Positions 2-55,200 of a stretch of DNA of 64,000 nt are shown here, in pieces. The notes below the pieces were generated by a model. It was not told the origin of the DNA and did not search any database. It saw only the letters and a list, made by a program, of their open reading frames with translations. The number at the start of each line of letters is the position of its first letter. Within the stretch, counting starts at the first letter, position 1. This stretch comes from Elusimicrobiota bacterium (GTDB taxonomy: Bacteria > Elusimicrobiota > Elusimicrobia > JACQPE01), in the NCBI GenBank assembly GCA_016180815.1, contig JACPAN010000006.1, positions 62,001 to 126,000 on the forward strand, given 5' to 3'. A program made the translations under genes and the position numbers.

Positions 2-259
2 TGCCATACGCTCGCCCGCGCCATTAATTCTCCCTATGCCTTGCCCGAGGAATGGGAACCTTATGTCAAAAAAATGTCTAAAAAGAAGCGCTCTGGGCTT
101 AGTAATCCCGCAGTGGTCAAAAAAATCACTGAATTTTTGAAATACGACTCCTCTGTTCGCAAAAAAGACCTGATTGAAAAAAAACTCAGCGAGAAGAAGG
201 CTAAAAGCCCAAGCGAGGAAGAGAAAAAGGAAGAAGCCGAAAAGAAAAATGGCCAGTGA
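2..259 (+). CDS. c-type cytochrome, C-terminal part (5' end outside window)
   Basis: The frame is open from base 2 and begins inside a haem-attachment motif (the CH of CxxCH, followed by TLARAINSPYALPEEW). The gene therefore starts upstream of the window, and the TTG at 41 is not its start. The visible part reads like the C-terminal half of a small monohaem cytochrome c: a CH...R..NSP segment, a WEP.V.KM segment that could give the axial Met, then a helix (ITEFLKYDSS) and a very Lys/Glu-rich tail of about 30 residues. It is probably a periplasmic electron carrier serving the respiratory complex encoded downstream. The TGA stop overlaps the GTG start of the next cytochrome gene, which implies translational coupling. 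Confidence 0.75.
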   Translation, partial: CHTLARAINSPYALPEEWEPYVKKMSKKKRSGLSNPAVVKKITEFLKYDSSVRKKDLIEKKLSEKKAKSPSEEEKKEEAEKKNGQ

Positions 260-780
260 GAGACAAAGGAGCGCGCAATCTCGTTTTTCTTGTGGTTTTT
301 ATTGGAGCCAATCTGTTTTCCTTCTACGGTTTTTTAGCCTACCGCGCGAGACTATGGAGCCCTCTTTGGGCAATCCAGCCTACTGAAAAAGAGTTTACAT
401 CAGTTCCCGGACTTGCGGCGGATGGAGAGGATTCCCCTACGGCCCGTGGACGTCGTCTTTATCGGGAATTTCGCTGCGCTGTCTGTCACGGGCCCAGCGG
501 CGAAGGAGGGGTTAAAAATCCCAACGCCGATCCGGACGGTGTAATTCCCAACCTCTACGACCTGGCCGATGCCTTTACGTTTAGTGACCTTAAGGGCAAG
601 CTCCTCAAAGGAGCTCATCCTGCCAAGGTTGAAGAAAGTGGCCCGGAGCCAATTCTTGACATGCCTTCCTGGAAGGAAGCGTTTTCTGAAGATGAAGTAG
701 ACGCGATGGCCCAATATCTTTTCAGTCTCAAACCTTCTCTAGTGAGCGAGAAAGAGGAGAAGGAGGAAGAGGAACCTTGA
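256..780 (+). CDS. membrane-anchored monohaem cytochrome c
   Basis: This 174-aa protein has an uncleaved-looking N-terminal membrane segment (residues about 8-30). One haem-binding motif, CAVCH, lies at residues 74-78, and a likely axial Met is M136 in the segment LDMPSW. This is the usual layout of a class I cytochrome c domain tethered to the outer face of the inner membrane. The start is a GTG overlapping the stop of the preceding cytochrome gene (GTGA). The C-terminus is an acidic Lys/Glu tail, similar in style to the tail of its neighbour. It belongs to the respiratory operon that continues through the NrfD gene and may shuttle electrons to or from the pentahaem subunit. Confidence 0.85.
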   Translation: MRDKGARNLVFLVVFIGANLFSFYGFLAYRARLWSPLWAIQPTEKEFTSVPGLAADGEDSPTARGRRLYREFRCAVCHGPSGEGGVKNPNADPDGVIPNLYDLADAFTFSDLKGKLLKGAHPAKVEESGPEPILDMPSWKEAFSEDEVDAMAQYLFSLKPSLVSEKEEKEEEEP

Positions 781-832
781 GAGAGAAACAATATTTTGTG
801 AATCTGAAAAACAAAAAAAGGAGGAGTTAGAC

Positions 833-1735
833 ATGGGTATTCATCCACTGACACTAAGTCTGTTCGTGGCCTTTGCGGCCTTGGGGGGATTCGCCAGCGT
901 TCGGTTGGGCAATCCTTTGTTGGCGATTGCCGGGGCAATCATAGGCCTGACCATAGTCTTATCGGTGCGTATTGCCCGCCAGTGGCAGAAGGCCGTGATC
1001 TTGAGGCTGGGTAAGTTTCAAGGCATGCGCGGCCCGGGTCTTTTTGGAATCCTGCCGTTTTTTGACACGATTCCATACTGGATTGATCTTAGAACGGTCA
1101 CCACACCGTTTGCTGCAGAGCAAACGCTAACTAAAGACAGCGTTCCCGTAGATGTGGACGCGGTGCTCTTTTGGAGAGTGGTAGATCCTATGAAAGCGGC
1201 CTTAGAAGTGGAAAATTATCGGGAAGCGATTTCCTGGTCTTCTCAGACGGCATTGAGAGACATCATCGGCGAAACAGACTTGGCCGAGATGCTGGTGGGA
1301 CGACGAAAAATTGACACCCGACTATGCCAGATGATTGATGAGCGCACGGAATCTTGGGGAATTAAAGCGCTTTCCGTAGAAATCAGGGACGTCAAAATTC
1401 CCGTGGCTCTTCAAAATGCCATGTCTATGCAGGCTCAGGCCGAAAGAGAACGTCAGGCGCGCTTAATCCTGGGAGACTCGGAGCTTCAGATAGCCGACAA
1501 GTTCAGGCAAGCCTCCAGAGCTTACTCGGAAACCCCGGTGGCCCTGCATCTGCGGGCGATGAACATTCTTTTGGAGGGGATGCGCCAAAATTCAACGGTT
1601 GTGATTGTGCCTTCCAGCGCGGTAGAAACAATGGGTCTAGGAGCCATGTCAGGATTGACCTCCTTGGCCAAGGAGTTTGCTGGACCCAAAAATATGGCGC
1701 CTTCAGAAAAAGAATCGGAAAAGACGGCGAAGTAG
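833..1735 (+). CDS. SPFH / band 7 protein, stomatin-like (slipin)
   Basis: This 300-aa protein has N-terminal hydrophobic segments (residues about 5-45) followed by a band 7/SPFH domain. The domain opens with KAVILRLGKF, a hallmark of slipins, continues through the RTVTTPF...LTKDSVPVDVDAV region, and ends in a helical segment with AQAERERQAR. Slipins oligomerise as membrane scaffolds that organise proteins or lipids. A strong Shine-Dalgarno (AAAAGGAGGAG) precedes the ATG. It is unusual to find it between two cytochrome genes and a pentahaem/molybdopterin/NrfD module. It may scaffold the respiratory complex, but that is inference from position only. Confidence 0.9.
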   Translation: MGIHPLTLSLFVAFAALGGFASVRLGNPLLAIAGAIIGLTIVLSVRIARQWQKAVILRLGKFQGMRGPGLFGILPFFDTIPYWIDLRTVTTPFAAEQTLTKDSVPVDVDAVLFWRVVDPMKAALEVENYREAISWSSQTALRDIIGETDLAEMLVGRRKIDTRLCQMIDERTESWGIKALSVEIRDVKIPVALQNAMSMQAQAERERQARLILGDSELQIADKFRQASRAYSETPVALHLRAMNILLEGMRQNSTVVIVPSSAVETMGLGAMSGLTSLAKEFAGPKNMAPSEKESEKTAK

Positions 1736-1776
1736 GATTATTTGAAAATCGCATCCAAGGGGTTTAAGGAGGCCTG

Positions 1777-2286
1777 GTGTCCAAGGAAGAGTTGTACGGC
1801 TGGCTTGGCTGGTTAGCCGTCGTTCTTGTGCTTATCGCGTCGGGGTGGTGGACCTACCAGAGATGGGAGGTTTCTCAGCCTGTCCCCTTTGACCACAAAA
1901 AACATGTTGATTTTGGGATTGCCTGCGATGCGTGCCATGTAGGGGCCAAGGACGAGATCCGCGCCAGCGTTCCCAACACCCCCATCTGCGCCTTATGTCA
2001 TCAACCTGGCCAAGCGAGCCCCAAGACCCCAAAAACTCTTGAGGGATATATTCAAGAAATGAAAACGATCCCGTGGAAAAAAATTTACAAGGCGCCCCAG
2101 CATGTTCGGTTTTCCCACAAACGCCACGTGGAGATGGGGAAATTGGATTGTAAGGTTTGCCACGGTGATATCGGAAAAATGGAAAGGCCAGTTGCCAGGC
2201 AGGCGGTGCCTCTTGAGATGGAGGGATGTATGGAATGCCACAGGAGGGAAAGGGTAACGACAGATTGCATGGCGTGCCACAAATAG
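1777..2286 (+). CDS. pentahaem cytochrome c subunit (QrcA/ActA-like)
   Basis: This 169-aa protein begins with a GTG start, preceded by a TAAGGAGG ribosome-binding site, and a membrane anchor at residues about 9-27. Five CxxCH haem motifs start at C50, C71, C125, C151 and C164. Two FDHKKHV / FSHKRHV segments supply the extra His ligands typical of class III / c7-type cytochromes. In the Qrc complex (hexahaem QrcA) and alternative complex III (pentahaem ActA), a subunit of this kind exchanges electrons between soluble cytochromes and the molybdopterin/iron-sulfur subunits. It lies directly before the molybdopterin-family gene with a 13-base gap, so I read it as the haem subunit of the same complex. 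Confidence 0.88.
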   Translation: MSKEELYGWLGWLAVVLVLIASGWWTYQRWEVSQPVPFDHKKHVDFGIACDACHVGAKDEIRASVPNTPICALCHQPGQASPKTPKTLEGYIQEMKTIPWKKIYKAPQHVRFSHKRHVEMGKLDCKVCHGDIGKMERPVARQAVPLEMEGCMECHRRERVTTDCMACHK

Positions 2287-2299
2287 GCGAGAGTAAAAA

Positions 2300-4441
2300 A
2301 TGGATATGGAAATTTCACGCAGAAATTTGTTTAAGTGGGCCGGTTTTTTGGGAGCAGGACTGGCTCTGCCCAAGGTTGTTAAGGCCAAGGTCCTGACCCC
2401 AAAAGAAAAACCCCTGCCCTATCTTGATTCTGAGGTCTATAAGCCTGCCGTCTGCAAGCTCTGCCCTGCGCTTTGCATGCTTCAAATCAGGGTGGTCAAT
2501 GGTAGTCCCGTTGGGGTCGCTGGAATGCAGGGGCACCCCATAAGCCAAGGGGCGCATTGCCCGAAGGGAGGGGCTATTCTTCAGGATCTCTATCATCCGG
2601 ACCGGTTGCGCTCGCCTATGCGTCAGACGGGACCGAGAGACTCTGGCCAATGGGAGAGAATCTCCTGGGATGAGGCTCATCAGATTCTTCATGACAAGCT
2701 TTTCGATTTAATTCGTCGCGGTAAACCCGAAGCGTTGGCCATGCTAGCCGCTCCCATAAGGGACATCCGCCACGAAATTCAGAAGCGTTTTGCCCAAATT
2801 TTTGGCACGTCCAACTTCTGGGAATGGAATTGGCCTTTGGCAACAGGGCCTTTGGACGCGTTTAAGACCATGCACGGAACCTCCGAGGGATTGTTTTATG
2901 ATCTCGCCAACGCCAATCTTGTTGTTTCTTTCGGATGGGATTGGCTCCAATCTTTTCTCTCTCCGGTCGAGGCGCAAAGGGCCTTTAGCCTGCTTCGGCG
3001 CGCAAGATTAGAGAGAAGGACCAGGATGATTCAGATAGAACCAAGGCTCTCCGTCACCGCCAGCAAGGCTGACGAGTGGATTTCCATCAAGCCCGATACC
3101 GAGGGAGTTCTTGCGCTGGGCGTGGCCCATGTGTTGATTCAAGAGAACCTCTACGACAAAAATTTTATCGTTCAATGGGCATCTGGTTTTGAGGAATTCA
3201 AAAAACTGGTTCTTAAGGAATATGAGCCTCAAAAGGTTTCCGAGATCGTTGGGATTAAGACCGACCAGATTTTTCAGATCGCCCATGAAATGGCTTCCAT
3301 TCGTCCTGCTTTGGCCATTACCTGCCGCACGAGCCGTTTTAACCAAATCGCCGTTCACAGCTTAAACGCCCTTGTAGGTTCGATTGGAGTCAAGCGCGGA
3401 ATATTGGCAACGGAAGCCGAAAAATATCAATTAACCTTGCCTCCCCTATCAATTCCTAAACCCAAGACCGAACCCATTGCGTCTCTTGACGGAATTCCTG
3501 AGGCCATCCTTGCGCCTTCCTCGAGCCCCATCGAGATTCTTTGGATGGAACGAGTCAATCCCGTATTTTTAAGCCCCCAACCTGCCCAATGGAAAAAGGT
3601 TATGGAAAAGATTCCCTTTATCATCAGCTTTTCATCTTTTTTGGATGAGTCATCTCAAATGGCGGATATTGTGCTCCCTCCTCATCACTCCCTGGAGGCT
3701 TGGCAGTATGGGTTTTCACCCACCCTTGAGGGTCATGGAGTGATCAGCTTCGCACCTCCGGTGATTGACCCGATTTACAACACTGGGGATCATGGAGATT
3801 TTATCTTGGGCTTGGCTAAATCCTTGGGGCAAAGATTTGCTTCGGCGTTCCCTTGGGAGACCTTCGTGGAGAGCCTTCAAAAAGCTGTCAAAAAAGCCGG
3901 AGCGGACGAGCCTATGAAAAAAGGTGGTTGGTGGGAATATCAAGCTGAGATCGCTAACATCGCCTCCACCATAAAAACCGGATCAAAAAAAATCAAGCTT
4001 GCCTCTGAGGCTCTGACATCGGTGGTTGAGGGGGCTCAAGACCCTTCTCATCCTCTTAGGCTTTATATTCACGTTCCCATGGCCTATTCTTTTGGGGAGG
4101 GGGCACATCTCCCTTATCTGCACAGCCTAGCTGGAGCGCATCTTGGCGAGCAGTGGGAGACCTGGGTGGAAATTCATCCTTATACGGCAAAAAGATTGGG
4201 TATTGCTGACAAACAGGAGATTTGGGTGGAGTCTTTGGCCGCCAAGATCAAAGCGCGCGCCAGACTCTATGAAGGCATCCGAGAGGATACGGTATCCGTT
4301 CCATTTGGCTTGGGTCATACGGCCCTGGGGCGCTATGCCCGGGGGATCGGAAGCAATCCCGGAGAGCTTCTCTCCAGCGAGATGGATGTGTCGGGCCAAA
4401 TTGCCTGGCAAAGAGCTCGGGTAAAAGTTTATGGCGCTTGA
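2300..4441 (+). CDS. TAT-exported molybdopterin oxidoreductase-family subunit (QrcB/ActB1-like)
   Basis: This 713-aa protein starts with a twin-arginine signal (SRRNLFK at residues 6-12, then a hydrophobic core). A 4Fe-4S motif follows: C52, C55, C59 and C87. The rest matches the molybdopterin oxidoreductase fold (GAHCPKGGAILQDLYHPDRL, and WERISWDEA). In the region where PsrA/DmsA-type enzymes carry the Cys/Ser/Sec that binds Mo, the segment TGPLDAFKTMHGTSEG contains no Cys. QrcB and ActB are known not to bind Mo, so this is probably a structural or electron-transfer subunit rather than a catalytic reductase. The 3' end overlaps the next gene by 11 bases. Confidence 0.85.
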   Translation: MDMEISRRNLFKWAGFLGAGLALPKVVKAKVLTPKEKPLPYLDSEVYKPAVCKLCPALCMLQIRVVNGSPVGVAGMQGHPISQGAHCPKGGAILQDLYHPDRLRSPMRQTGPRDSGQWERISWDEAHQILHDKLFDLIRRGKPEALAMLAAPIRDIRHEIQKRFAQIFGTSNFWEWNWPLATGPLDAFKTMHGTSEGLFYDLANANLVVSFGWDWLQSFLSPVEAQRAFSLLRRARLERRTRMIQIEPRLSVTASKADEWISIKPDTEGVLALGVAHVLIQENLYDKNFIVQWASGFEEFKKLVLKEYEPQKVSEIVGIKTDQIFQIAHEMASIRPALAITCRTSRFNQIAVHSLNALVGSIGVKRGILATEAEKYQLTLPPLSIPKPKTEPIASLDGIPEAILAPSSSPIEILWMERVNPVFLSPQPAQWKKVMEKIPFIISFSSFLDESSQMADIVLPPHHSLEAWQYGFSPTLEGHGVISFAPPVIDPIYNTGDHGDFILGLAKSLGQRFASAFPWETFVESLQKAVKKAGADEPMKKGGWWEYQAEIANIASTIKTGSKKIKLASEALTSVVEGAQDPSHPLRLYIHVPMAYSFGEGAHLPYLHSLAGAHLGEQWETWVEIHPYTAKRLGIADKQEIWVESLAAKIKARARLYEGIREDTVSVPFGLGHTALGRYARGIGSNPGELLSSEMDVSGQIAWQRARVKVYGA

Positions 4442-5243
4442 AATATTAGATAGAAGAAATTTCCTTAAGACGATTTTGGCTGCTATGGGTTCGTTCGCGG
4501 CATTGGTCAGTCGCGGCTTTACGTTCGAATTCAATAGCAATGAACACGCTGCTTCAAGAGGCCATCCCCGCTGGGGAATGGTGATTGACCTTGACCGCTG
4601 CACAGGCTGCCAGAGCTGCGTTGTGGCCTGCTCCGTGGAGAACAACCAGATGTTAGGAAGCCCTGAGGAAGCTGCTATGGGAAGGATCATCCGATGGCTC
4701 AAGATTCTCCCTAAGACGGAGTCAGAGGGTTCCCGCGTGCGTCAAAGTTTAATTCCCATGCCCTGCCAGCAGTGCGATGACCCTCCCTGTACTCGGGTTT
4801 GTCCCACCTCGGCCACCTTTATTAATCCTGAGGGGATCGTGGGTCAAGTTTATGACCGCTGTATCGGCTGCCGTTACTGCGTAAATGCTTGTCCTTATAC
4901 CTGCAAGTTTTTTAATTGGGGCAAGTCCCAATGGCCAAAAGAGGTGGAACAATCCTTTAACCCAGATGTTTCCGTACGCGACAAGGGAGTCGTAGAAAAA
5001 TGTCTCTTTTGCCACCATCGCCTTCAAAGAGCCAAGGATGCGGCCAGAGAGGAGGGCCGGGATATTCAGGAGGGAGACTATGTGACGGCCTGCCAGGCGG
5101 CTTGTCCGGCCCAGGCCATTACGTTTGGGAACCTTAATAACCTCAACAGCGCCGTTTCGAGGCTAGCTTCCAGTCATCGCGCATTCAAGATACTGGATGA
5201 TCTCGGCACCCATCCGAAGGTCGTCTATCTAAAGGAGGGGTGA
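4431..5243 (+). CDS. ferredoxin-type 4x[4Fe-4S] subunit (QrcC/PsrB/DmsB family)
   Basis: This 270-aa protein begins with a TAT-like leader (DRRNFLKTILAAMG at residues 7-20). Sixteen cysteines sit in the four-cluster pattern of the PsrB/DmsB family: C57-C60-C63-C67, C112-C115-C120-C124, C144-C147-C150-C154, and C191-C194 with C221-C225. It should form the electron wire between the molybdopterin-family subunit and the NrfD membrane subunit on the periplasmic side. The start codon lies inside the upstream gene (11-base overlap) and the stop overlaps the next start, so the three subunits are translationally coupled. Confidence 0.92.
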   Translation: MALEILDRRNFLKTILAAMGSFAALVSRGFTFEFNSNEHAASRGHPRWGMVIDLDRCTGCQSCVVACSVENNQMLGSPEEAAMGRIIRWLKILPKTESEGSRVRQSLIPMPCQQCDDPPCTRVCPTSATFINPEGIVGQVYDRCIGCRYCVNACPYTCKFFNWGKSQWPKEVEQSFNPDVSVRDKGVVEKCLFCHHRLQRAKDAAREEGRDIQEGDYVTACQAACPAQAITFGNLNNLNSAVSRLASSHRAFKILDDLGTHPKVVYLKEG

Positions 5244-6598
5244 TGAGCGAATTGATGGACAAGGAGCTTAAAAATTCAAACGTACGATTTTCCTGGCCTG
5301 TGCCCCAGCCTGAGGAAGTGCACGACGTTGAATCGGAGGTGTTAAAGCCGATAACAAATGAGCCAACCACGGCTTTCTACGCGACGACGGCCATACTTGC
5401 TACGGTGTTCTTAGCCGGTGTCGCGGCCTGGGCGTGGCAGATCATCAATGGTCTCAAGGTAACGGGCCTCAATGTTCCCGTGTTTTGGGGGTTATACATC
5501 GTCAACTTCGTGTTCTTCATCGGCGTGTCGCACGCCGGAACGCTCATCTCGGCTATCTTGAGGATCACTGACGCGGCCTGGAGAACGCCTTTTACGCGGG
5601 TCGCTGAAAGCATCACTATTGCGAGCCTTCCTTTTGCTGCGAGCTCCGTCATCGTGGACCTGGGCCGGCCGGACCGGTTCTTAAACGTCATCTTGTATCC
5701 GCACCTCACCTCGCCCATCCTTTGGGATGTCCTGTGCATCAGCACCTATCTCCTCATGTCTTGTTTGTACTTTTACATAGCTTTGGTGCCGGATATCGCG
5801 CTTTGCCGGGACCGCTTGACAGGACTAGCTGCCTGGCGCTCGCATTTTTACCGGCTCCTGGCGCTCGACTGGCAAGGGACCCCGCAGCAGAAGCGGTTGC
5901 ATCATCAACTGATGTCGGTCTTATCCATCCTGCTCCTGGCCCTTGTTATTTCCGTGCATACGAACGTTGGGTTCATTTTCGGAATGACTACAAAGCCAGG
6001 TTGGCATAGCGCCGCGATTGGACCCTATTTCGTGGTTGGGGCAGCTTTCCAGGGCTTGGGGGGTCTCGCTGCGATTATCGTTCTAGTACGCCGGTGGTTT
6101 CATCTTGAGTGGATTATTACGGAGGAGCGCTTGGCGCCTTTGAAGAAGTTTTTTCTGGCCGTGGCCTGCTTCTGGGCTTATTTCACTCTGGTCGAATTTT
6201 TGACCACGTATTACGGCCGGCATACGGCGGAGATGGAGGTGTTTTGGGCCAAGCTTACCGGCGAATTCTGGCTGCCGACCTGGGGCATGCTGACTTTTTG
6301 CCTGTTCATCCCGTTGCCGCTATTGGCCTTAAGCCGCTGGCGTATTACTACGGCCCTTCTTATCGCAGGAATTTCAGTCAACATCGGGATGTGGTTGGAA
6401 CGCTATACCATTGTTGTCCCCAGCGGAGCGAGGCCCTACCTTTCATGGGGCATCGGCCACTATAATCCAAGTTGGGTGGAGTGGACGATTACGGCAGGTT
6501 GGTTTGCGGGATTTTGTTTATTCTTTTTGGTGCTCACTCGTTTATTTCCGATATTGACTGTTTGGGAAGTTCAAGAAGAAAAAGAAGGCTCCCACTGA
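5243..6598 (+). CDS. NrfD/PsrC-type quinone-interacting membrane subunit (QrcD/ActC-like)
   Basis: This 451-aa polytopic membrane protein has many hydrophobic helices from residue about 45 to 445. It shows NrfD-family signatures such as FFIGVSHAGTLISAILR and DLGRPDRF, where NrfD/PsrC/ActC proteins bind quinone. It is the membrane anchor of the complex encoded by the preceding three genes and would exchange electrons with menaquinone. A GTG at 5240 is possible, but ATG at 5243 is better placed behind AAAGGAGGGG. The start overlaps the upstream stop. Only one NrfD copy is visible, as in Qrc. Alternative complex III usually has two (ActC and ActF). Confidence 0.92.
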   Translation: MSELMDKELKNSNVRFSWPVPQPEEVHDVESEVLKPITNEPTTAFYATTAILATVFLAGVAAWAWQIINGLKVTGLNVPVFWGLYIVNFVFFIGVSHAGTLISAILRITDAAWRTPFTRVAESITIASLPFAASSVIVDLGRPDRFLNVILYPHLTSPILWDVLCISTYLLMSCLYFYIALVPDIALCRDRLTGLAAWRSHFYRLLALDWQGTPQQKRLHHQLMSVLSILLLALVISVHTNVGFIFGMTTKPGWHSAAIGPYFVVGAAFQGLGGLAAIIVLVRRWFHLEWIITEERLAPLKKFFLAVACFWAYFTLVEFLTTYYGRHTAEMEVFWAKLTGEFWLPTWGMLTFCLFIPLPLLALSRWRITTALLIAGISVNIGMWLERYTIVVPSGARPYLSWGIGHYNPSWVEWTITAGWFAGFCLFFLVLTRLFPILTVWEVQEEKEGSH

Positions 6599-6909: not shown

Positions 6910-8445
6910 TTACCAATTGGTCGGCTTGTAGTCCTTGAAGAATTTTCCCCAGAGGTGGCGGCCTTCCAGGAGTCCTGAAAAAAATGGATCGCAAACGCGG
7001 GCGGCGCCATCGACGATATCCAGCGGGGGTTCGAATCCGTGCTCTTCTTGCTTGCGCGCCGACAAATGGGCGGGGTCCTCATCGGTGACCCAGCCGGTGT
7101 CAACCGCATTCATATAGATGCCGTCCTTGGCGTAATCCGCGGCTGAGGTTACAGTCAGCATGTTCAGCGCGGCTTTAGCCATGTTCGTGTGCGGGTGCTT
7201 GTCCGTCTTGGTGTGCCGCGAGAAGCTGCCTTCCATGGCGGAGACATTGACGATATGTTTTTCCCATGTCGGTTGGCGCAGCATCAAGGGCTTAAGCTTT
7301 GAGCACAGAATAAAGGGAGCGACCGCGTTAATGAGTTGAAGCTCGATCATTTCAGCTGTGGGCACTTCGGCCAAGGGCATGCGCCAACTGTTCATTTTAC
7401 GCAGGTCCACTTGCTGCAAGTCGGCATCCGTGCGTCCCGGGGGGAATACCTCTAATCCCAAGTCGGCGTCATCGTAATTGTATTTGAGTTGAGACAGCAT
7501 GGCCGACTCCCTAACTCCGATGCCGAAGCCTCCGCGGTGCCAGATTGCCATGCCGGTGGCGTCGACCGGACCGGCTTGGGGCAACAAGGACGGTGTGTTG
7601 GCCAGCAGGCTTTTAAGGTGTTCGTGATTGCGCAACAGCCGCCGTTCATCCTGGGCCAGGGCCGGGTTCCCCGGTGTTTCGAATTCAAGCAGGTGTTGGT
7701 AAAAAGCCGGCGGGCGGCGCACCGTTTGCGCCGCATTGTTGACCAGAATGTCTAAGCGCTCAAGCGAGCTGTCGAGGTAGCGGCAGAAAATTTCGACGCT
7801 GGGCGAGTGGCGAAGGTCAAGGCCGTGGATTTGAAGCCTCGCGCTCCAGTCCCCGAAATCTTTTTCCCGTGAGTAGCGCCGGGCGGCGTCGTGCGGAAAT
7901 CGCGTGGTCGCTATAACCTTGGCCCCGGCGCGCAGCATCATCAGTGAAGCTTGATACCCGATTTTAAGCCGCGCCCCGGTAATAACGGCCGTTGTTCCCT
8001 TTAAGGACGCCGTCTGAAAGCGTTTGAAGTAATTAAATTCGGCGCAGGGGCCGCACATGGCGTCGTAGAAGAAATGGAGTTTGTCGAATTTTGTCTTGCA
8101 AACGTAACAGGTGCGCGGGGTGTTAAGCGCCGGCCCATCCTGCGCCGGCCCGATATCGAGAGTCGGCTTGGCCGGAGCGGCGAATACCGTCTCCCGGCGT
8201 AGGGAGCGTATCTGGGTTTCAGCCAGGAGCAAACGATCCTCGGTTCTGATGCGTTTGCGCTCTTGGCTGCGATAGGCCCGCCGCCGCAATATTTTTTCCA
8301 GGCGCGTGGGGCGCGAAACGCGCCCAGCCGCGGTCAGCAGAGCGATTTGATCTTTTTCCGGAAGCCCGATAAGAAGCGCGCGATTCTTAACGATCGCCTC
8401 AAGGAGTTCGATGCAGCGGCGGACCAAGTAGATGTCAAGCAACAA
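6910..8445 (-). CDS. SDR-fold protein with N-terminal zinc-ribbon-like insert
   Basis: This 511-aa protein has an N-terminal helical, basic region (residues 1-110) and a C113xxC116...C131xxC134 cluster that looks like a zinc ribbon. A short-chain dehydrogenase Rossmann domain follows (TGARLKIG near residues 156-163, NNAAQTVRRPP further on). At the SDR active site, the usual YxxxK is TNMAK (HTNMAKAALNML), so the catalytic Tyr is replaced by Thr. Similar NNAAQT/TNMAK proteins exist among divergent SDRs of unknown substrate. It is downstream of the MutS-like gene on the same strand with a 56-base gap, so co-transcription is likely. I cannot name a substrate. Confidence 0.8.
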   Translation of the reverse strand: MLLDIYLVRRCIELLEAIVKNRALLIGLPEKDQIALLTAAGRVSRPTRLEKILRRRAYRSQERKRIRTEDRLLLAETQIRSLRRETVFAAPAKPTLDIGPAQDGPALNTPRTCYVCKTKFDKLHFFYDAMCGPCAEFNYFKRFQTASLKGTTAVITGARLKIGYQASLMMLRAGAKVIATTRFPHDAARRYSREKDFGDWSARLQIHGLDLRHSPSVEIFCRYLDSSLERLDILVNNAAQTVRRPPAFYQHLLEFETPGNPALAQDERRLLRNHEHLKSLLANTPSLLPQAGPVDATGMAIWHRGGFGIGVRESAMLSQLKYNYDDADLGLEVFPPGRTDADLQQVDLRKMNSWRMPLAEVPTAEMIELQLINAVAPFILCSKLKPLMLRQPTWEKHIVNVSAMEGSFSRHTKTDKHPHTNMAKAALNMLTVTSAADYAKDGIYMNAVDTGWVTDEDPAHLSARKQEEHGFEPPLDIVDGAARVCDPFFSGLLEGRHLWGKFFKDYKPTNW

Positions 8446-8501
8446 GAGAGATTTTATCGTAATTGCCGGGAATTCCGGGGAGGTTTTCGGCCGGATTCAA
8501 A

Positions 8502-11501
8502 TCAGAGAGAGGCGGGCTGCAAATCATTGAAATGGCGCTGCTTGGCGTCATCGGTGGAGAGCATGGGGAAGCCCTGGGATTTTAATTTCATGATCAGTTG
8601 GGCCTGCCATTTCCGGGCGCAGCTTTTGCCTGCGGCCACGCCGGCGTAGATCAATTCCGCGTCTTTTTTGTCCGGGCTGTTGCGATGGGCGTTGATGCGC
8701 GCGATCAGGTTGTCCGTTTCACCGATGTAGAAGAACCCCTGCTTTGTTTTCAGCACATAAAGGCAGCTGCTGTTCATATTTTTAAAAAGAGGATACGCGT
8801 CCGGAGCCACATAGTGGATGGCGGGCTCGGCGATGCCCGCGATTTCGCTTAAAGCCAAACGGGCGTTTTCAATGGAGAATTTTTTATTTTGGGGCGCTGT
8901 TTCATAGGGCGCTTTGCGTTCGCCTAAATAGTTGCCGCTAAAATGCATCGAATAACCCTCGGCAATTTCCATGGCGCGTTCGATGATTTTTTTGTCCATC
9001 CCCAATCTCAGGGCGGTATCGAAGGCGCTGGAGCTTAAGCTGCTGTCGGCAACGACTTTGTAGGTCGGGCCGCCTTGGCGCACCTGCATCGAGTATTGGC
9101 CGATGCCCTCAAGATTGATTTTTGGATTGAAGAACAGCTCATGCCAGTGGGTGGCGAATAAGCCTTTGACTTGGCGTTGATTGAGGTGCTCCAAAACGGC
9201 GGCGGCGATGGCGTGTCCGGCTTTGGATTCCGTGCCTTTGCCGAGCTCATCAATGAAAATCAGGCTGTGCTCCGTGGCGTCGCGCAAGGCGATTTTAACG
9301 TCGGTCATTTCCACGGCGAACGCGGAAAGGCCTGATTGCGGGTCATCTTGAACACCGGTGCGCACGAACCAGCCGTCGATTTCATCCGAGCCCTCGACTT
9401 TGTCCGCGGGGAACATCCAGCCGGATGCGGCCAGAAGCGTGGTCGTAGCCAGGGAACGGATCAACGTTGATTTCCCGGACATATTGTGCCCGGTCAATAG
9501 CATGATGCCCTCAAGCCTTAAGGTATTCTTCACCGCTTCATGCGGGCTCATCCAATAGGGGAAAAAATTTTTCACAACAAGCGATTTTCCGGGCCGCCGA
9601 ATGAAACCCGCTTCAAGGCTCCAGCCTTTGGCCTGGCACTCTTTGACATGAAGGATCAGCGTGCGCATGAAATTGGAGAACGTGGCCAGATGCACGATGG
9701 CCGGATGATGCGAGGCGAGTTTTTGGCAGATTTGGCCTAAGAGCAAGGCCACGCCCAGCCGCGCTTTTTCGGCATTTTCTTTGTATTCCTCAAGGGCGCG
9801 CTCAACTTTAGCCGTGCTCCAGCGGTCTTTGACCGGTTTGCCGTGTCGGTCATGAGGATGAATCAGCCGTCCGGCGTTCGCCGGACCCCTCAGCCAAATA
9901 GCCAGATTGTGAACGTCATAGGAGAGCGCCAGCGCGGGATTGGCATCGATGGCAGGAATCAAATCTTCGGCGAGGGCTTCTTCGTAGCGTCCGGCCGCGC
10001 GCTCCACCGCCTCGTAAAGTTTGGTAATTTCCGGATGCGCGGTCTTAGCCACCCGGCCTTTGAAGGCATCTTCAACCGTCTCGAAAAGATTTACGGAAAT
10101 CCCCTCGCGGCGCGGTTCATAGGGGATGTCGTCTTCGTGGGGAAGAACGGGTTCCAACGTTTCAAGGATCACGCGCGCGCTCGCTTTTAACGCGGTTTCA
10201 TTGATTTTCGTGGACAGAATATGGGAAATCACGGACAGAGCCGACGGCATGGACGCGGCAAAATCCATTTGATAGCAGGAGAGAAAATTCTGAGCCAGTT
10301 TATGCAGGTCTTTTAAGATATCCGGCCCGGCTTCTCTTTTAATGAGGGTCTTGACGTAGCGCGCCGGGTTGGAGATCGGAAATTCGTTGAAAAACGTGCA
10401 TGTGGACAAAATCGCGTTTAAGGTGAAGCGCAATTCATCCGCGGTTTGTTTTGGGGGAGGGTTGAGCAAAAAATTGCGGATTAAGTTTTGTGCAGCCGCG
10501 GGGCTGCCTTTAGGCAGCATGTGTTCGATCAAATCCGGGATGCCGCGCTCGGGCAGGATGCCGATTTGATTGGCCGTGCGCTGATAAACCGGTCGCGGCG
10601 CCTGAACCGGCCGGTCCTCAAGAGGCCGAAGCCGCATGAAGGGCGTTTCGATATCCAAGGACAAATCGATTTTGATCAATTCCTCAACGCGTTTGGAAAA
10701 ATCCTTGGGTAAATACCCGGAAATTTTGATCAAACGCTCATAATGAATGCCGCTGCGCTCAAGAAACTCCTTATCCGTATTTTCATGGCAGAAAATCCGG
10801 CCCAGACGCCCCCCGTAGCGCGTCAAGCGCATGCACGCGGCTTCCCGCGTCAATCCTTCATAAGTCCAGAGTGTGCGCAAATCGGGATTGACCTCAACCA
10901 CAATCATGCCCCTGGCGTCCGCGGCAATGCCGAATTCCGGTGGACAATCGGGGAACAAAGCGTTGCCCCGGTCTTTGTTCATGGCCAAGCCGTAGGTGTA
11001 CACCGGCGACGAGGGCGTGACGATTTCCGAGATAAAGCGCGTTTTTCTGCCGGTTTGCGTGATATCGTTGGTTTGTTCGCACACGACCACGGCAAAGCCG
11101 GCTTGGGTCAAGCCGTCTAAAACCGCCTGGATATTGGCCAAGGGCGCGCCCGCTCGCGGCCCGCGTTTGCCCATTCTGTTTAAACCGCAGTATTCCACGA
11201 GAAAGACGGAGTCGATCCCCCATGTTTCGTAGAATTCGCCGACTTGGATCAAGACGATTTTCTCCGGATGCTGTTTTTTTACCCGGAACAAAAAATCGAC
11301 GGTCGCCTCTTTTTCCCCGTATGCGTGTTTGAAGCCTTTCCAAAAAGGATTGTTGCCCGCGCCGATGCCCAGGGCTCCCGAAGGATCCAAATCATGCGCC
11401 ATGCGGACCGCGGAAGGATGAACGATGCAGTTGAGCTTTTCTTTCCAGAAAGGGGAAGAAATTAAAAGATGGGACAACTCATGATGTTCTTGCAGGCGCA
11501 T
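8502..11501 (-). CDS. MSH1-like MutS with C-terminal GIY-YIG nuclease domain
   Basis: This 999-aa protein has a MutS domain I (residues about 65-190; VGEFYETWGIDSVFLVEYCG, PRAG.PLANIQ..LD.LT) and long MutS core helices. The ATPase has Walker A TGHNMSGKST at about 669-678, Walker B LIFIDELGKGTE and FATHWHELF. The final 90 residues are a GIY-YIG domain (LYVLKTKQGFFYIGETDNL, then GKSCARKWQAQL and DDAKQRHF). This architecture, and the wording of the N-terminal and GIY-YIG segments, match my memory of plant organellar MSH1, not bacterial MutS1 (which has no nuclease domain) or MutS2 (Smr domain). It probably recognises mismatches or recombination intermediates and cuts DNA. Its start is only 26 bases from that of a divergent stand-alone GIY-YIG gene. 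Confidence 0.93.
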   Translation of the reverse strand: MRLQEHHELSHLLISSPFWKEKLNCIVHPSAVRMAHDLDPSGALGIGAGNNPFWKGFKHAYGEKEATVDFLFRVKKQHPEKIVLIQVGEFYETWGIDSVFLVEYCGLNRMGKRGPRAGAPLANIQAVLDGLTQAGFAVVVCEQTNDITQTGRKTRFISEIVTPSSPVYTYGLAMNKDRGNALFPDCPPEFGIAADARGMIVVEVNPDLRTLWTYEGLTREAACMRLTRYGGRLGRIFCHENTDKEFLERSGIHYERLIKISGYLPKDFSKRVEELIKIDLSLDIETPFMRLRPLEDRPVQAPRPVYQRTANQIGILPERGIPDLIEHMLPKGSPAAAQNLIRNFLLNPPPKQTADELRFTLNAILSTCTFFNEFPISNPARYVKTLIKREAGPDILKDLHKLAQNFLSCYQMDFAASMPSALSVISHILSTKINETALKASARVILETLEPVLPHEDDIPYEPRREGISVNLFETVEDAFKGRVAKTAHPEITKLYEAVERAAGRYEEALAEDLIPAIDANPALALSYDVHNLAIWLRGPANAGRLIHPHDRHGKPVKDRWSTAKVERALEEYKENAEKARLGVALLLGQICQKLASHHPAIVHLATFSNFMRTLILHVKECQAKGWSLEAGFIRRPGKSLVVKNFFPYWMSPHEAVKNTLRLEGIMLLTGHNMSGKSTLIRSLATTTLLAASGWMFPADKVEGSDEIDGWFVRTGVQDDPQSGLSAFAVEMTDVKIALRDATEHSLIFIDELGKGTESKAGHAIAAAVLEHLNQRQVKGLFATHWHELFFNPKINLEGIGQYSMQVRQGGPTYKVVADSSLSSSAFDTALRLGMDKKIIERAMEIAEGYSMHFSGNYLGERKAPYETAPQNKKFSIENARLALSEIAGIAEPAIHYVAPDAYPLFKNMNSSCLYVLKTKQGFFYIGETDNLIARINAHRNSPDKKDAELIYAGVAAGKSCARKWQAQLIMKLKSQGFPMLSTDDAKQRHFNDLQPASL

Positions 11502-11527: not shown

Positions 11528-11803
11528 ATGGCGAAGAGAGCGAAACTAAAGCCTTCGTGGTTCGTTTATATCGCCTTATGCGCCAACGATACTTTTTACA
11601 CGGGAATCACGACGGATATCAAGCGTAGGTTTCAAGAGCACGTATCTTCACGAGGCGCTCGCTACACTCGCTCATTTAAACCAATCAGATTGCTTTGGAA
11701 GGAGCCGCATCCCGAGCGTTCCAGCGCCCTTAAACGTGAAGCTCAGATCAAGAGCTGGAGCCGGCCGCAGAAAGAAGCGTTTATTTACGGCAGGGCTTTA
11801 TAG
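11528..11803 (+). CDS. GIY-YIG nuclease family protein (UPF0213/YhbQ-like)
   Basis: This is a 91-aa single-domain protein. It has [20 protein letters not shown] (the GIY-YIG strands), the conserved Arg (IKRRFQEH), [11 protein letters not shown] and a C-terminal [10 protein letters not shown] helix, all typical of the small UPF0213 group. Function in the cell is not established for most members, though DNA-related roles are assumed from the fold. ATG 11528 is preferred over TTG 11522. There is no Shine-Dalgarno, and an AT-rich box (TATATTAT) lies 11-16 bases upstream. The 3' end overlaps the convergent nitrite-reductase gene by 19 bases. Confidence 0.88.
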
Positions 11804-12804
11804 ATTTGCGGCGCCTCGGCGCCGGTCGCGTTGATGATGCCCACTGCTCCTTTCTCAATCCTGAAGATGGAATGATCCACCAACGTGTAGCTGCCCGGAA
11901 CTTCCAGGCCGAATTCCACGATGGCCGCGCCCCCGGCCGGGATCAGCGTGGTCTGCACGTTTTTTAACCCGGAAGCGTCCATGCTGCCTTCTTTGTAGAC
12001 GCGGTCGAAGATTTCCCCGATGATATGGAATGAGGACACCAGGTTGGGGCCGCCGTTGCCCAGAAAGAGGCGTATTTTTTCCCCGGTTTTGGCGGTCAGG
12101 GCGTTGTCCTCCGTCAGGGCGCCGTAGCGGCCGTTGAAAACCACGTAGGTCGGTTTTTCTTCGGCGGCTTTATCGCGGTCGTATTGGACAAGCCTTTCGG
12201 TGCCGAATTCTTCTTTCGTGTAGAATTCGCTTTGCAGCACGTAGAATTCCCTGTCCACCTTAGGCAGGCCTTCGGGCGGCTCCACTAGAATGAGTCCATA
12301 CATGCCGTTGGCGATATGATCCGTCACCGGCGGCGCCGCGCAGTGATAGACGTAGAGACCGGAATGCATCATTTTAAATCGGGCGACCACGGTTTCTCCG
12401 GGTTTGGCCAACGTGACGGCTGCGCCGCCTCCCGGGCCGGTGACCGCATGAAGATCGATGTTGTGGCTCATCGTGCTTTCCGCGGGATTTTTCAGATGCA
12501 GTTCCAAGGTGTCGCCTTGCCGAACCCGGATGAACGGGCCCGGAACATGGCTGTTGAACGTCCAAAAAATATATTCGGTCGGCTGATCCAAACCTTCCAT
12601 GAGGACGCCTTTGACCTCCGGCGTTTCCAACTTGACGCGAACGACCACGGGTTTTTTCCGGGCAATAGGGACCGGAACATGGGGCGCGTAGGTTAGTTCG
12701 GCATCGATGGTTTCTTCGGTTTTAGCCGGCGCGTCAGCGGCAAAGGCGAGGATGCACGCAATGACGGCGAATGCGGCCAAAGGACTTCTGATATTAATAT
12801 TCAT
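11785..12804 (-). CDS. nirK: copper-containing nitrite reductase (NirK)
   Basis: This 339-aa protein has a Sec signal peptide (residues 1-27) and two cupredoxin domains. The type 1 copper site is H114, C155, H163 and M168 ([16 protein letters not shown]). The type 2 site is H119, H154 and H311. The catalytic pair appears as D117 (HNIDLH) and H260 ([11 protein letters not shown]). It reduces nitrite to nitric oxide in the periplasm, taking electrons from cytochrome c or a cupredoxin, and the cytochromes at the left end of the window are possible partners. It lies 10 bases downstream of a small secreted-protein gene on the same strand. No NO reductase is visible here, so the window does not show what happens to the product. 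Confidence 0.95.
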
Positions 12805-51637: not shown

Positions 51638-52141
51638 ATGGGTAGGGAATTATTTTTAGTCGTCAGCCTGTTGGCTTTAGCGCCTCACGCTAAAGTTTTC
51701 CAAACAATCCCGCCTTCCACCCAAGTTAACTTTTTATCTCAGCAAATACGCATGGAGCGCCCCTCGCTTCTTGCTGTCAGCGCCGAGGGGTTTGATTTTC
51801 GCGATGAACATAATCATCCCACGGCGGGGAATCAGCCTCAGGCCGACGCTTTGTTTTTGGAATCAGCTTGGAACCTTCTTGTTCTGGGTCAAACATGGCC
51901 GCGGGTTTATGCCGGAAAGCTTTTGAGCGCAGCCGGCGATTTGATCAAACGCTTGGTTCTGTCGGTTGAAAAAGCGAAGACGCTGACGCTGTCGGCCATT
52001 AATTCTTGGCGCAGCGTTGCCAGACGTTCCGCAGTCGGCCGCATGGTCGGACGTATTCTCAATCGTAGTTTTTCCCTATCTCTTACCCATCGTCTCTTGT
52101 TTCGAATTTTTCTCTCACAAAATATTCCCCTTCGTTTGTGA
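51638..52141 (+). CDS. small secreted protein directly behind the c-di-GMP riboswitch
   Basis: This 167-aa protein starts at ATG 51638 with GAGGAGA 6 bases before it. The N-terminus is hydrophobic (ELFLVVSLLALAPHA), like a short signal peptide. The middle is polar (DFRDEHNHPTAGNQPQADA), and the last 70 residues are helical and strongly basic (SWRSVARRSAVGRMVGRIL). No family is recognised. Because it follows the riboswitch and precedes the giant repeat protein on the same strand, it may be an export or anchoring accessory of that protein. It could also be a remnant. Confidence 0.6.
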   Translation: MGRELFLVVSLLALAPHAKVFQTIPPSTQVNFLSQQIRMERPSLLAVSAEGFDFRDEHNHPTAGNQPQADALFLESAWNLLVLGQTWPRVYAGKLLSAAGDLIKRLVLSVEKAKTLTLSAINSWRSVARRSAVGRMVGRILNRSFSLSLTHRLLFRIFLSQNIPLRL

Positions 52142-52149
52142 GAAAGCCG

Positions 52150-52170
52150 CCTTCGGTTTTAAACCGAAGG
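52150..52170. other. hairpin between the small secreted protein and the giant gene
   Basis: CCTTCGG-TTTTAAA-CCGAAGG, 9 bases after the stop codon. There is no T-run after it, so it may be an mRNA-processing or stabilising stem or a weak terminator rather than a standard intrinsic terminator. Confidence 0.4.
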
Positions 52171-52242
52171 TTGAACCCCCGAACCTTAGTTTGTGTCGCT
52201 TCTGTATTTTGGGTTTTTAAGCAGCGTCAAAGAGTAGGGTTC

Positions 52243-55200
52243 ATGGAAAAACATTGGTCCGTCGAACCTGAGCGGCAAATGGGCCCCTCAAAAAAGAGCG
52301 CAGCGGGGGGAAGGGGGAGGGCTTTTGCCGTTTTTCAATTTTGGGTTTTAAATCTCAAATTAACGCTGATTCCGGTCATTGTGGCTTTATTGACGGCATT
52401 CCCTATGGAAGCGGCGCAAAGAAAAGTGGGCAATGCCGGCGCTTCCACGGCTTTCGGGGGACAAAAGAACGTCATTTATGTGCCTTCTGTCGGTTATTGG
52501 ATTTTTTTCAAGGATATCAATGCCGACCGTTCAGTCTGGCGTTTTTCCACAGATGGCCAGGATTGGACGAGTTCCTCGGACATATTCCCTTATCTTCAGT
52601 TGGCTCCGGATGCGGCTGCTCCCGAGCCTTCCGTGTGGCATGTGCCCAGCTTGGATAATGACGGCGTAACTTATACGGGTCGCGTTTATGTGTCGGCCGG
52701 CGACGCCACCTCCGATGTCAATGCCACGGCGCCATCGGCCAACTTGTCCATGGTGGACAACAGCGGTAATAAGATGTTCGTGCGCTGGGGTAAGTTAAGA
52801 GTGGATGGGGGTATTGATTGGGACAGCGCAACAGGCATTAGGCGTCAGCGCGTGGGGCTTCGCATCCAGAATGCCTTTTGTCAGTATGTGGAGAACACGA
52901 CGGGTTCTACCGTATGGGACGTGTTGGGGGGCGGGAAGCCCGCCGTTGTGGTTTATTCAAGTTCTACCGCCGGCGGTTATGTGGCTCTTTTCGGCAATGC
53001 CAGAAATGCGATCGCTACAGTCAGCAGCATCGGCGGCATCGGTGTCACTAATTTGACCGAGGATCTCAGCGGTTATATAGACGGTTCGTTTAATGTTTAC
53101 GCTTTTTGCAATGAAAATGACGCAGTCGCGACAGGTTCGGGCGGCGACTACACGGCCTTGAGCCCGGCCGGTCTGTCGATCGCCCCTGTTTTGGACAACG
53201 GCGTGGCTAATTTTTTCATGGGAGTCCGGGTTGATAATTCCGTTGCCGCCAGTTATGGAGGCAAGGGAGCTTTGGTGCGTTTGAGTTCCTCAAGCCTCAG
53301 ATTAACAAGCCTTGACGGTACCCCGGATACCACCGGCTCGACAAGCGTAGACAATACAAATACCCTCAGCGCGACGGATGCTTTGACTATTTTAAATCCC
53401 GGCGTCCATGGTTTCAGGAATACCGAAGAGGAGAATAATATTGAGGGTTTTAATTTCAGCATCATTAATGAGGTGGCCAAGAGTTCAGCTCACATTGCTT
53501 ATATCGACAATTTAGCCGGCGTCGCTTATAGGAGGAAAACAGCTCCGACAACGGTTACCGCGCCCATTGTGCTTGTTTCTTCGCCGGCGGGCGGCACAGG
53601 CAGTTTTCCTCCGCAGAGCCCGGCCATCACTCTTGTCAATAACGCTAAAGGTCAGGCAAATTACAATGAAGTTTATGTTTTGTGGGTTAGCTCAGACAAT
53701 GCCGCCATTCGCTACAGGGTGGGACCGGCGACGGCGACTGCGGATGCTGATTTTGGAGCGACGACCACATTTAAGACGGGAACCGGCCTGAATTACCCCA
53801 AAGTCGGTTTTTCGGTTGATTACCCGAAACCCATCGGCATTATTTGGGAGGCATCCGACGGCGTTTATTTCGACAAAATTATCACCTCGACCTGGATCCC
53901 GCCTGTTATTTCAGCCGTCAGTTCCGCTCCTGCATCGGCGCCCTATAGCGCACAGGCTTACGATTTGGTGGTTGACGACAGTTTAAGCGGTTTCAGGACG
54001 CTGGGTAATGAAAAACCCGACGTCAAGCTTCTGGTCAATGACGAGGTGGACGATGATATTGCCATCACCTCCGTTACTTTTGTGAGCAACGGCCAAATAA
54101 AAGTTTCGGTCATTGTTTCTACATTCGTTCAGGCAGGGACGGGGTACACATTGCGCGTCACCAATCCGGACGGCCAGGAAGTGTCGCGCTCCTCGGCCAT
54201 CACGATCAATAAGCCGACGATCACCAGCATCCGGGACACGGACGCAAACAATTTCACTTCATGCGGTATTTTCCCCAATAACGACGGCACGACGAACAAA
54301 AGCTGCAAAATTATGGTTTCAGGAAACTATTTTCAAAATTGGACCGGCATCACGGGAACCACGGTTTTGCCGAGCACGAATGCGGTCGCGGTACTGATCG
54401 CCACGGAAACGGCCAATGGCGTGACTGTTTCCTCGCTGGCTTATACGGGAACGCCGCCGGCGTCCGTTGATTTGTTCCTGAAGATTTCGACGCAAAACGC
54501 AGCCGGTGTGTACACGTTTAATTTGACGAACCCGTCGTCGGGCAGCGTGCTTCAACCCACGACGTTTTACATCACCGTGCCCACCGCTTCCATTTCCGCG
54601 CCCATGGCCGGGGTGACCACGGGATTTACCGTGATTGTGGGAAGTTTCGGTTACACGCCTAATGTGGGGCAAGCGACGAATGATACAAGCCAGATCAAAA
54701 TCACTTATTTAGGCACACCCAGGAAGGTGTGGAACGGTTCTTCGATGAAACTGGAGACGGATACCGGCGAGTTCCCAACGGAAGAGGCCAAGTGGAAGGA
54801 TGTCGGCTCTCAGTTCATCAGCTCTTGGACATACACGTTCATCGCCACCAACACCGTGGCCGTGCCTGATGACGGCGATTATGAAATTTTGGCACGGGCC
54901 AGGACCTCCGACGGCGGCATCGGCGAGCCTTTTAAGTCGCCGTTTTTTTCGACCGTGGCTGTTGTCCTGGACCGCAAGCCGCCCAGCTGGGCGATCACCA
55001 GCCCGGGTAATGACGCGGCGATCAACACTCTGGCCTTTGATCCCGTGATTCAAGTCAGTGATTTGGGCGCGGGTTTGACCACCGTGGAAATGTTGATTCA
55101 GGACATCGGGTTGCCACAAGCCGCGGAAACCAATTGGCAGGCTTTTAATTCAACGGGGACTTTGGGTTCGGCTCCGGCCGGAACGCAGATTTGGCTGTCG

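What the first reader, a model, noticed from the sequence alone, without database searches (positions are those of the whole stretch)
8502..11501. Bacterial MutS with the plant-MSH1 architecture (MutS core plus C-terminal GIY-YIG nuclease)
The protein combines MutS domain I and ATPase with a GIY-YIG domain at the C-terminus. Plant organellar MSH1, which suppresses mutation and ectopic recombination in mitochondria and plastids, has this arrangement. Segments such as VEYCG, PRAG.P.ANIQ..LD.LT, FYIGETDNL and the DDAKQRHF end follow MSH1 wording as I remember it. Bacterial MutS1 and MutS2 do not have this nuclease. A bacterial homologue bears on where MSH1 came from and would be a single-protein mismatch-recognition and cutting system.
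Basis: partly seen in the sequence, partly recalled or inferred. Interest (0 to 1): 0.82.

Follow-up and report, generated by a model that had tools for sequence, protein, structure and literature searches.

The report
Plant-type MSH1 as lone bacterial MutS
This bacterium carries a full-length relative of the plant organelle DNA-repair protein MSH1 as its only MutS protein, with no standard mismatch-repair genes left, but the cutting domain has lost the one residue such nucleases need, so it probably senses and binds bad DNA pairing rather than cutting it.

Summary
The 999-aa ORF at 8502-11501 (-) has MutS domain I (with the mismatch-reading F-Y-E), a MutS ATPase and a C-terminal GIY-YIG domain. 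It matches Arabidopsis MSH1 along its whole length (E 2e-101), including a middle region where MutS1 proteins show nothing; the Arabidopsis sequence was recalled from memory and checked against published length and domain coordinates. It is a plant-type MSH1.

Two corrections. Bacterial MSH1 is not new: a small gammaproteobacterial clade is published. And the nuclease is probably dead: Tyr, Tyr, Gly, Arg and His are kept, but the metal-binding Glu is Gln966, the same change (E79Q) that inactivates Slx1.

New here: it is the only MutS in a 99.5%-complete genome; MutS1, MutL and NucS were not found, and MutS1 and MutL are missing from all four genomes of its family. In a same-family genome the two flanking genes are direct neighbours with no msh1, an empty site indicating gain by insertion. 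No other genome of the phylum's 341 has it.

Best reading: an acquired MSH1 that surveys heteroduplex or branched DNA without cutting, in a lineage that lost MutS-MutL. Function is inferred; phylum (Elusimicrobiota?) and donor are unconfirmed.

The parts
8502..11501 (-). msh1 gene, 999 aa, plant-type MSH1 (MutS core plus C-terminal GIY-YIG domain); only MutS of the genome
11010..11294 (-). MutS domain I (residues 70-164), mismatch-recognition domain
   Evidence: Pfam PF01624, E 1.9e-12
11226..11234 (-). F90-Y91-E92, counterpart of E. coli MutS Phe36/Glu38 mismatch-contacting motif
   Evidence: sequence GEFYE; role of Phe36/Glu38 from PMC12292046
8961..9503 (-). MutS domain V ATPase (residues 667-847)
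   Evidence: Pfam PF00488, E 1.1e-35
9468..9491 (-). Walker A, residues 671-678 (GHNMSGKS)
   Evidence: sequence
9231..9260 (-). Walker B region (IFIDELGKGT, residues 748-757), followed by the MSH1-type Glu of 'GTE'
   Evidence: sequence
8526..8768 (-). GIY-YIG domain (about residues 912-992), Slx1/UPF0213 type
8604..8606 (-). Gln966 (CAG) at the catalytic metal-binding Glu position of GIY-YIG nucleases
   Evidence: all eight aligned GIY-YIG domains from the same bacterial family or class and recalled AtMSH1 have Glu
6910..8445 (-). flanking SDR-type oxidoreductase gene, same strand, 57 bp downstream of msh1; left border of the insertion
   Evidence: 86% identical orthologue in G003; nucleotide homology to G003 ends at window 8479
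11528..11803 (+). divergent UPF0213/YhbQ-type GIY-YIG gene with intact catalytic residues (KREAQI Glu present); right border of the insertion
   Evidence: Pfam E 9.4e-20; orthologue adjacent to the SDR gene in G003

Best explanation
The gene encodes a true plant-type MSH1 that was acquired horizontally by this bacterium, entering between an SDR gene and a yhbQ-like gene, in a lineage that had already lost MutS1 and MutL. It most likely works as a homodimeric MutS that recognises mismatched heteroduplex or extrahelical bases through domain I (F90-Y91-E92) and undergoes ATP-driven changes in domain V. It then uses its Slx1-like GIY-YIG domain to bind branched DNA without cutting, because the metal-binding Glu is Gln966. 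The net effect would be surveillance of recombination intermediates (blocking homeologous recombination), perhaps with mismatch repair through host nucleases and RecA/RuvC rather than MutL. Shown: architecture, MSH1 homology, lost Glu, sole MutS, no MutL or NucS found, empty site in a same-family genome. Inferred: direction of transfer, lack of cutting, DNA-level function.
For: Single BLASTP alignment of residues 8-991 to recalled AtMSH1, 334 bits, E 2e-101, against two short separate hits to MutS1. Each region matches on its own: N-terminus plus domain I 1e-27, middle 3e-28 (50 shuffles reach 29 bits against 104; MutS1 proteins give nothing above about 17), ATPase 2e-37, GIY-YIG 8e-17. The recalled sequence fits published AtMSH1 length (1118 aa) and domain positions. 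Only MutS_V match in the genome. The MutL model finds only 23-bit ATPase noise in G000 and no over-cut-off hit in the other three genomes of the family. No NucS. RecA and RuvC present. Empty site in G003. No MSH1 in the other 340 genomes of the phylum. Gln966 in place of Glu; Slx1 E79Q, Eco29kI E142A and ANKLE1 E551A are inactive, and Eco29kI E142A still binds DNA. The GIY-YIG domain is otherwise conserved to the last motif, so it is not simply decaying.
Against: No close relative was found, so Gln966 cannot be checked in a second sequence and selection cannot be measured. No plant, viral or gammaproteobacterial MSH1 could be fetched; the plant sequence is recalled. Codon usage fits the host, so there is no compositional sign of recent transfer. 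Three of the four family genomes are only 81-91% complete. Purified plant MSH1 showed no mismatch preference in vitro (PMC12292046), so mismatch recognition is not assured.
Confidence: 0.6

Rival explanations
1. Active single-protein mismatch-cutting system as proposed for plant MSH1: the GIY-YIG domain cuts near mismatches and the break is repaired by RecA-dependent recombination, with Gln966 tolerated or another residue holding the metal.
For: Rest of the active site intact; RecA and RuvC present; plant MSH1 model of break induction and recombinational repair (PMC12292046); no other mismatch-repair endonuclease found.
Against: E79Q in Slx1, the same substitution in the same subfamily, is inactive (PMC6902002); Eco29kI E142A and ANKLE1 E551A show no activity.
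Confidence: 0.15
2. MSH1 senses the mismatch or branched DNA and a separate catalytically intact GIY-YIG enzyme, for instance the divergent YhbQ-type neighbour or UvrC, cuts in trans.
For: YhbQ-type gene with all catalytic residues lies next to msh1 and is of the same Slx1-type cluster as the MSH1 domain (PMC1564403).
Against: The yhbQ gene already sat next to the SDR gene in G003 without msh1, so the adjacency is an accident of the insertion site; no shared operon (divergent strands).
Confidence: 0.08
3. Ordinary MutS1 that independently gained a GIY-YIG tail (convergence with MSH1).
For: MutS_I and MutS_V domains match MutS1 as well.
Against: Middle region and GIY-YIG domain match recalled AtMSH1 specifically; far below the MutS1 family cut-off; tree pairing 100/100.
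Confidence: 0.03
4. Vertically inherited MSH1, lost in the relatives, rather than an insertion in this lineage.
For: Codon usage fully host-like; deep divergence from plant MSH1 (29% identity).
Against: Absent from all 340 other genomes searched in the phylum; flanking genes are direct neighbours in G003; vertical descent would need many losses.
Confidence: 0.1
5. A passively acquired, decaying gene without function.
For: Loss of one catalytic residue; no consensus sigma-70 promoter found near the gene.
Against: 999-codon intact frame, host-adapted codon usage, all ATPase and mismatch motifs kept and the extreme C-terminal motif conserved.
Confidence: 0.07

Closest known systems
Plant MSH1 (CHM; Arabidopsis AT3G24320, Q84LK0)
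   Same: Same order of domains, full-length colinear similarity (29-33% identity), FYE, MSH1-type GTE motif after Walker B, Slx1-type GIY-YIG tail with the same C-terminal motif.
   Different: No organelle targeting region; catalytic Glu of GIY-YIG replaced by Gln; lives in a bacterium without MutS1 or MutL. Comparison used a recalled sequence that agrees with published length and domain positions.
MSH1 of Gammaproteobacteria and nucleocytoviruses (PMC12292046, citing Wu et al. 2020)
   Same: MSH1-type protein outside plants, spread by horizontal transfer, with GIY-YIG.
   Different: Apparently another bacterial phylum; their sequences could not be fetched, so identity and the state of their Glu are not known here.
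Slx1 and UPF0213/YhbQ GIY-YIG proteins
   Same: The GIY-YIG domain is of this type: invariant Tyr, Tyr, Gly, Arg, His; best structural matches; published assignment of the MSH1 domain to the Slx1 cluster (PMC1564403).
   Different: Those carry the catalytic Glu; here Gln, equal to the inactive Slx1 E79Q mutant.
NucS/EndoMS
   Same: Also a stand-in mismatch-repair protein in lineages without MutS-MutL (PMC5290159).
   Different: Unrelated protein; not found in this genome.

Membership tests
Plant-type MSH1 | MutS domain I with mismatch-contacting F-x-E | tested here: met
   PF01624 E 1.9e-12, residues 70-164; GEFYE at 88-92
Plant-type MSH1 | MutS ATPase domain V with Walker A and B | tested here: met
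   PF00488 E 1.1e-35; GHNMSGKS, IFIDELGKGT
Plant-type MSH1 | C-terminal GIY-YIG domain of Slx1 type | tested here: met
   Pfam 17.7 bits (weak), alignment with 5 invariant motif residues, fold match to UPF0213 and Slx1
Plant-type MSH1 | Intact GIY-YIG catalytic residues (Tyr, Tyr, Arg, His, Glu) | tested here: not met
   Glu replaced by Gln966; the others present. I take architecture and homology, not activity, as what defines the family, so membership stands but the claim of cutting does not
Plant-type MSH1 | Colinear full-length similarity to MSH1, including the middle region not shared with MutS1 | tested here: met
   E 2e-101 over residues 8-991; middle region alone E 3e-28, against a recalled AtMSH1 checked by published length and domain coordinates
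Plant-type MSH1 | Falls in the MSH1 clade of a MutS tree | tested here: inconclusive
   Pairs with recalled AtMSH1 at 100/100, but only two MSH1 rows, long branches, and no verified MSH1 could be fetched
Plant-type MSH1 | Suppresses mutation and ectopic recombination | not testable with these tools
   needs experiment
MutS1 | Scores above the NCBIfam MutS1 cut-off; co-occurs with MutL | tested here: not met
   TIGR01070 164.5 bits against 641.7; no MutL in genome
MutS2 | No domain I, C-terminal Smr domain, above cut-off | tested here: not met
   domain I present, no Smr domain found, TIGR01069 122.6 bits against 400
MutS7 (octocoral mtMutS type) | C-terminal HNH endonuclease domain | tested here: not met
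   no HNH match in Pfam scan; GIY-YIG instead

The most novel reading that the evidence does not exclude
A horizontally acquired MSH1 has replaced the whole MutS-MutL pathway in a bacterium and does its job without cutting: mismatch sensing coupled to a nuclease-dead GIY-YIG domain that clamps branched DNA, so that mismatch repair or the barrier to homeologous recombination runs without MutL, MutH or NucS.
Probability: 0.25. Interest if true: 0.8.

Novelty: new variant of a known kind. Interest (0 to 1): 0.58.

Why it matters
Plant MSH1 keeps organelle mutation rates among the lowest known and is thought to come from horizontal transfer, but its donor and its mechanism (does the GIY-YIG domain cut?) are open. 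A bacterial member in another phylum widens the pool of possible donors. A natural E-to-Q version, identical in kind to the laboratory-dead Slx1 mutant, separates mismatch sensing and branch binding from cutting. Because it is the only MutS in a genome where MutS1, MutL and NucS were not found, it is also a clean candidate for a third, MutL-free way of handling mismatches in bacteria.

Tried and rejected
MSH1 in viral contigs: six scans with protein, alignment and motif patterns gave no MSH1, only phage GIY-YIG homing endonucleases. Phage and plasmid collections: only MutS1/MutS2-type partial matches. The one genome-contig scan returned only two MutS_I-like pieces in Firmicutes, so the gammaproteobacterial MSH1 clade could not be reached; E. 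coli could not be used as a search centre. 399 Bacillota genomes: nothing, but without a positive control this shows little. Full-length AlphaFold from a single sequence failed (pLDDT 36) and is not used. Idea that msh1 and the neighbouring yhbQ form a pair: weakened because yhbQ stood there without msh1 in G003. Contamination of the assembly: rejected, since both flanking genes have orthologues side by side in a genome of the same family. Second MutS1, MutL or NucS hiding in the genome: searched, not found. The weak NucS_C hits in relatives come from frames of about 137 aa, too short to be NucS. Promoter and terminator scan gave nothing above chance; RNA fold of the msh1-SDR gap is unremarkable.

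Full report
Observation. The ORF at 8502-11501 on the minus strand is intact and 999 aa long. Pfam finds MutS domain I (residues 70-164), MutS domain V (667-847) and, weakly, GIY-YIG (913-946). Solved-structure matches are MutS proteins over the ATPase. The GIY-YIG assignment is secured by an alignment with the Slx1-type GIY-YIG proteins of the same family of bacteria, in which Y915, Y925, G927, R935 and H939 are invariant. A domain model built only from window sequences has core pLDDT about 80 and the beta-beta-alpha-beta-alpha order. Its best PDB matches are UPF0213 BH0048 and Slx1; Foldseek E-values are weak (0.01-0.1) with probability 0.96-0.99.

Membership. No plant MSH1 is in the collections at hand. 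I therefore wrote out Arabidopsis MSH1 from memory, used it as a lead, and checked it against print: the published length is 1118 aa, with MutS_I at 125-228, the MutS ATPase at 761-947 and GIY-YIG at 1024-1091 (PMC6651420). The recalled sequence has 1118 aa, with VGEFYE at 144, Walker A at 767 and the GIY motif at 1025. Against it the window protein gives one alignment over residues 8-991, 29% identity, E 2e-101. Every section matches by itself, including residues 170-640 (E 3e-28, 104 bits; best of 50 shuffles 29 bits), where five MutS1 proteins, among them E. coli's, give nothing. NCBIfam MutS1 and MutS2 models score far under their cut-offs. A tree of 25 MutS proteins pairs the two MSH1 rows at 100/100, with the caveat of long branches and only two MSH1 rows. 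I take membership in plant-type MSH1 as very likely (about 0.95).

The nuclease. GIY-YIG enzymes need a Glu that holds the metal. All eight GIY-YIG domains aligned from this family and class (YhbQ-type and UvrC) and recalled AtMSH1 have it; the window protein has Gln966, codon CAG. UvrC and UPF0213 structures carry Glu in the same column. Slx1 E79Q is catalytically inactive (PMC6902002), Eco29kI E142A neither cuts nor nicks but still binds DNA (PMC1952068), and ANKLE1 E551A is inactive (PMC10287932). The most likely state is a DNA-binding, non-cutting GIY-YIG domain (about 0.7). The rest of the domain, to the C-terminal DDAKQRHF, still follows MSH1, which argues against simple decay.

The genome. 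The window lies in a 2.85-Mb genome, 99.5% complete. This gene is its only MutS_V match. The MutL model finds only a 23-bit ATPase match, and NucS is not found. The three other genomes of the family (81-91% complete) also lack MutS and MutL, while most genomes of the class have both. RecA and RuvC are present. MutS1-MutL was therefore probably lost in the family, and msh1 is the only MutS-type protein left in this one. Some prokaryotes are known to lack both MutS-MutL and NucS, and further routes have been suspected (PMC5290159).

The insertion. In G003, same family but another genus, the SDR gene (86% identical protein; nucleotide homology to window 6911-8479) and the divergent yhbQ-like gene are neighbours with roughly 100 bp between them and no msh1. 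In the window msh1 occupies exactly that gap: 8502-11501 between SDR at 6910-8445 and yhbQ at 11528-11803. No other genome among 341 searched in the phylum has msh1. Gain by horizontal transfer is the simplest account. The transfer is not recent by composition: msh1 codon usage is among the best fits to its neighbours. The contig is not foreign contamination, because both flanks are native to the family.

Which organism. A single-contig genome of the same class has 1,643,562 bases (G051), which I remember as the chromosome length of Elusimicrobium minutum; that would make this Elusimicrobiota. This is memory, not a test; a paper search did not confirm it.

Known and new. MSH1 in a small clade of Gammaproteobacteria, in protists and in nucleocytoviruses is published, and nucleocytoviruses are favoured as donor to plants (PMC12292046). 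So 'a bacterial MSH1' is not new. New, as far as the held literature and collections show: the different phylum (if the identification holds), the sole-MutS setting without MutS1, MutL or NucS, the empty site, and the natural loss of the catalytic Glu.

Mechanism. Shown from sequence: mismatch motif, ATPase motifs, branched-DNA-type GIY-YIG without its metal ligand. Inferred: a MutS dimer that samples DNA, locks on mismatched heteroduplex or branched intermediates, and by binding blocks or marks them, leaving resolution to host enzymes. In plants MSH1 suppresses point mutation and recombination between short repeats, and the purified protein acts on recombination intermediates but did not prefer mismatches in vitro. 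I therefore favour recombination surveillance as the primary task (about 0.5), with mismatch correction possible.

Limits. One sequence only; no verified MSH1 in the tree; collections capped; no experiment.

Noticed in passing
window 52138-63999, + strand: One reading frame of at least 3954 codons runs off the end of the window: a giant protein gene.
   Followed up: no
window 256-6598: Cytochrome c, multihaem cytochrome, molybdopterin oxidoreductase, 4Fe-4S and NrfD genes in a row (alternative complex III or polysulfide-reductase-like respiratory cluster); its codon usage fits the window least.
   Followed up: partly
window 11785-12804: Two-domain multicopper oxidase or nitrite-reductase-like protein of 339 aa.
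   Followed up: no
G043 (same class, 95% complete); also G016, G022, G042: No MutS, and no MutL match above noise: possible further independent losses of mismatch repair in the class.
   Followed up: no
L040:251-574, L041:862-1074: MutS-domain-I-like stretches in Firmicutes metagenome-assembled genomes; in L041 the FYE motif sits in a 422-aa open frame that does not look like a mutS gene.
   Followed up: partly
L035, L036, L037, L038 (IMG/VR contigs): A 256-aa GIY-YIG homing-endonuclease-like protein, identical over the stretch held, recurs on four viral contigs, in L035 just downstream of a 464-aa ORF that may be a capsid gene.
   Followed up: no
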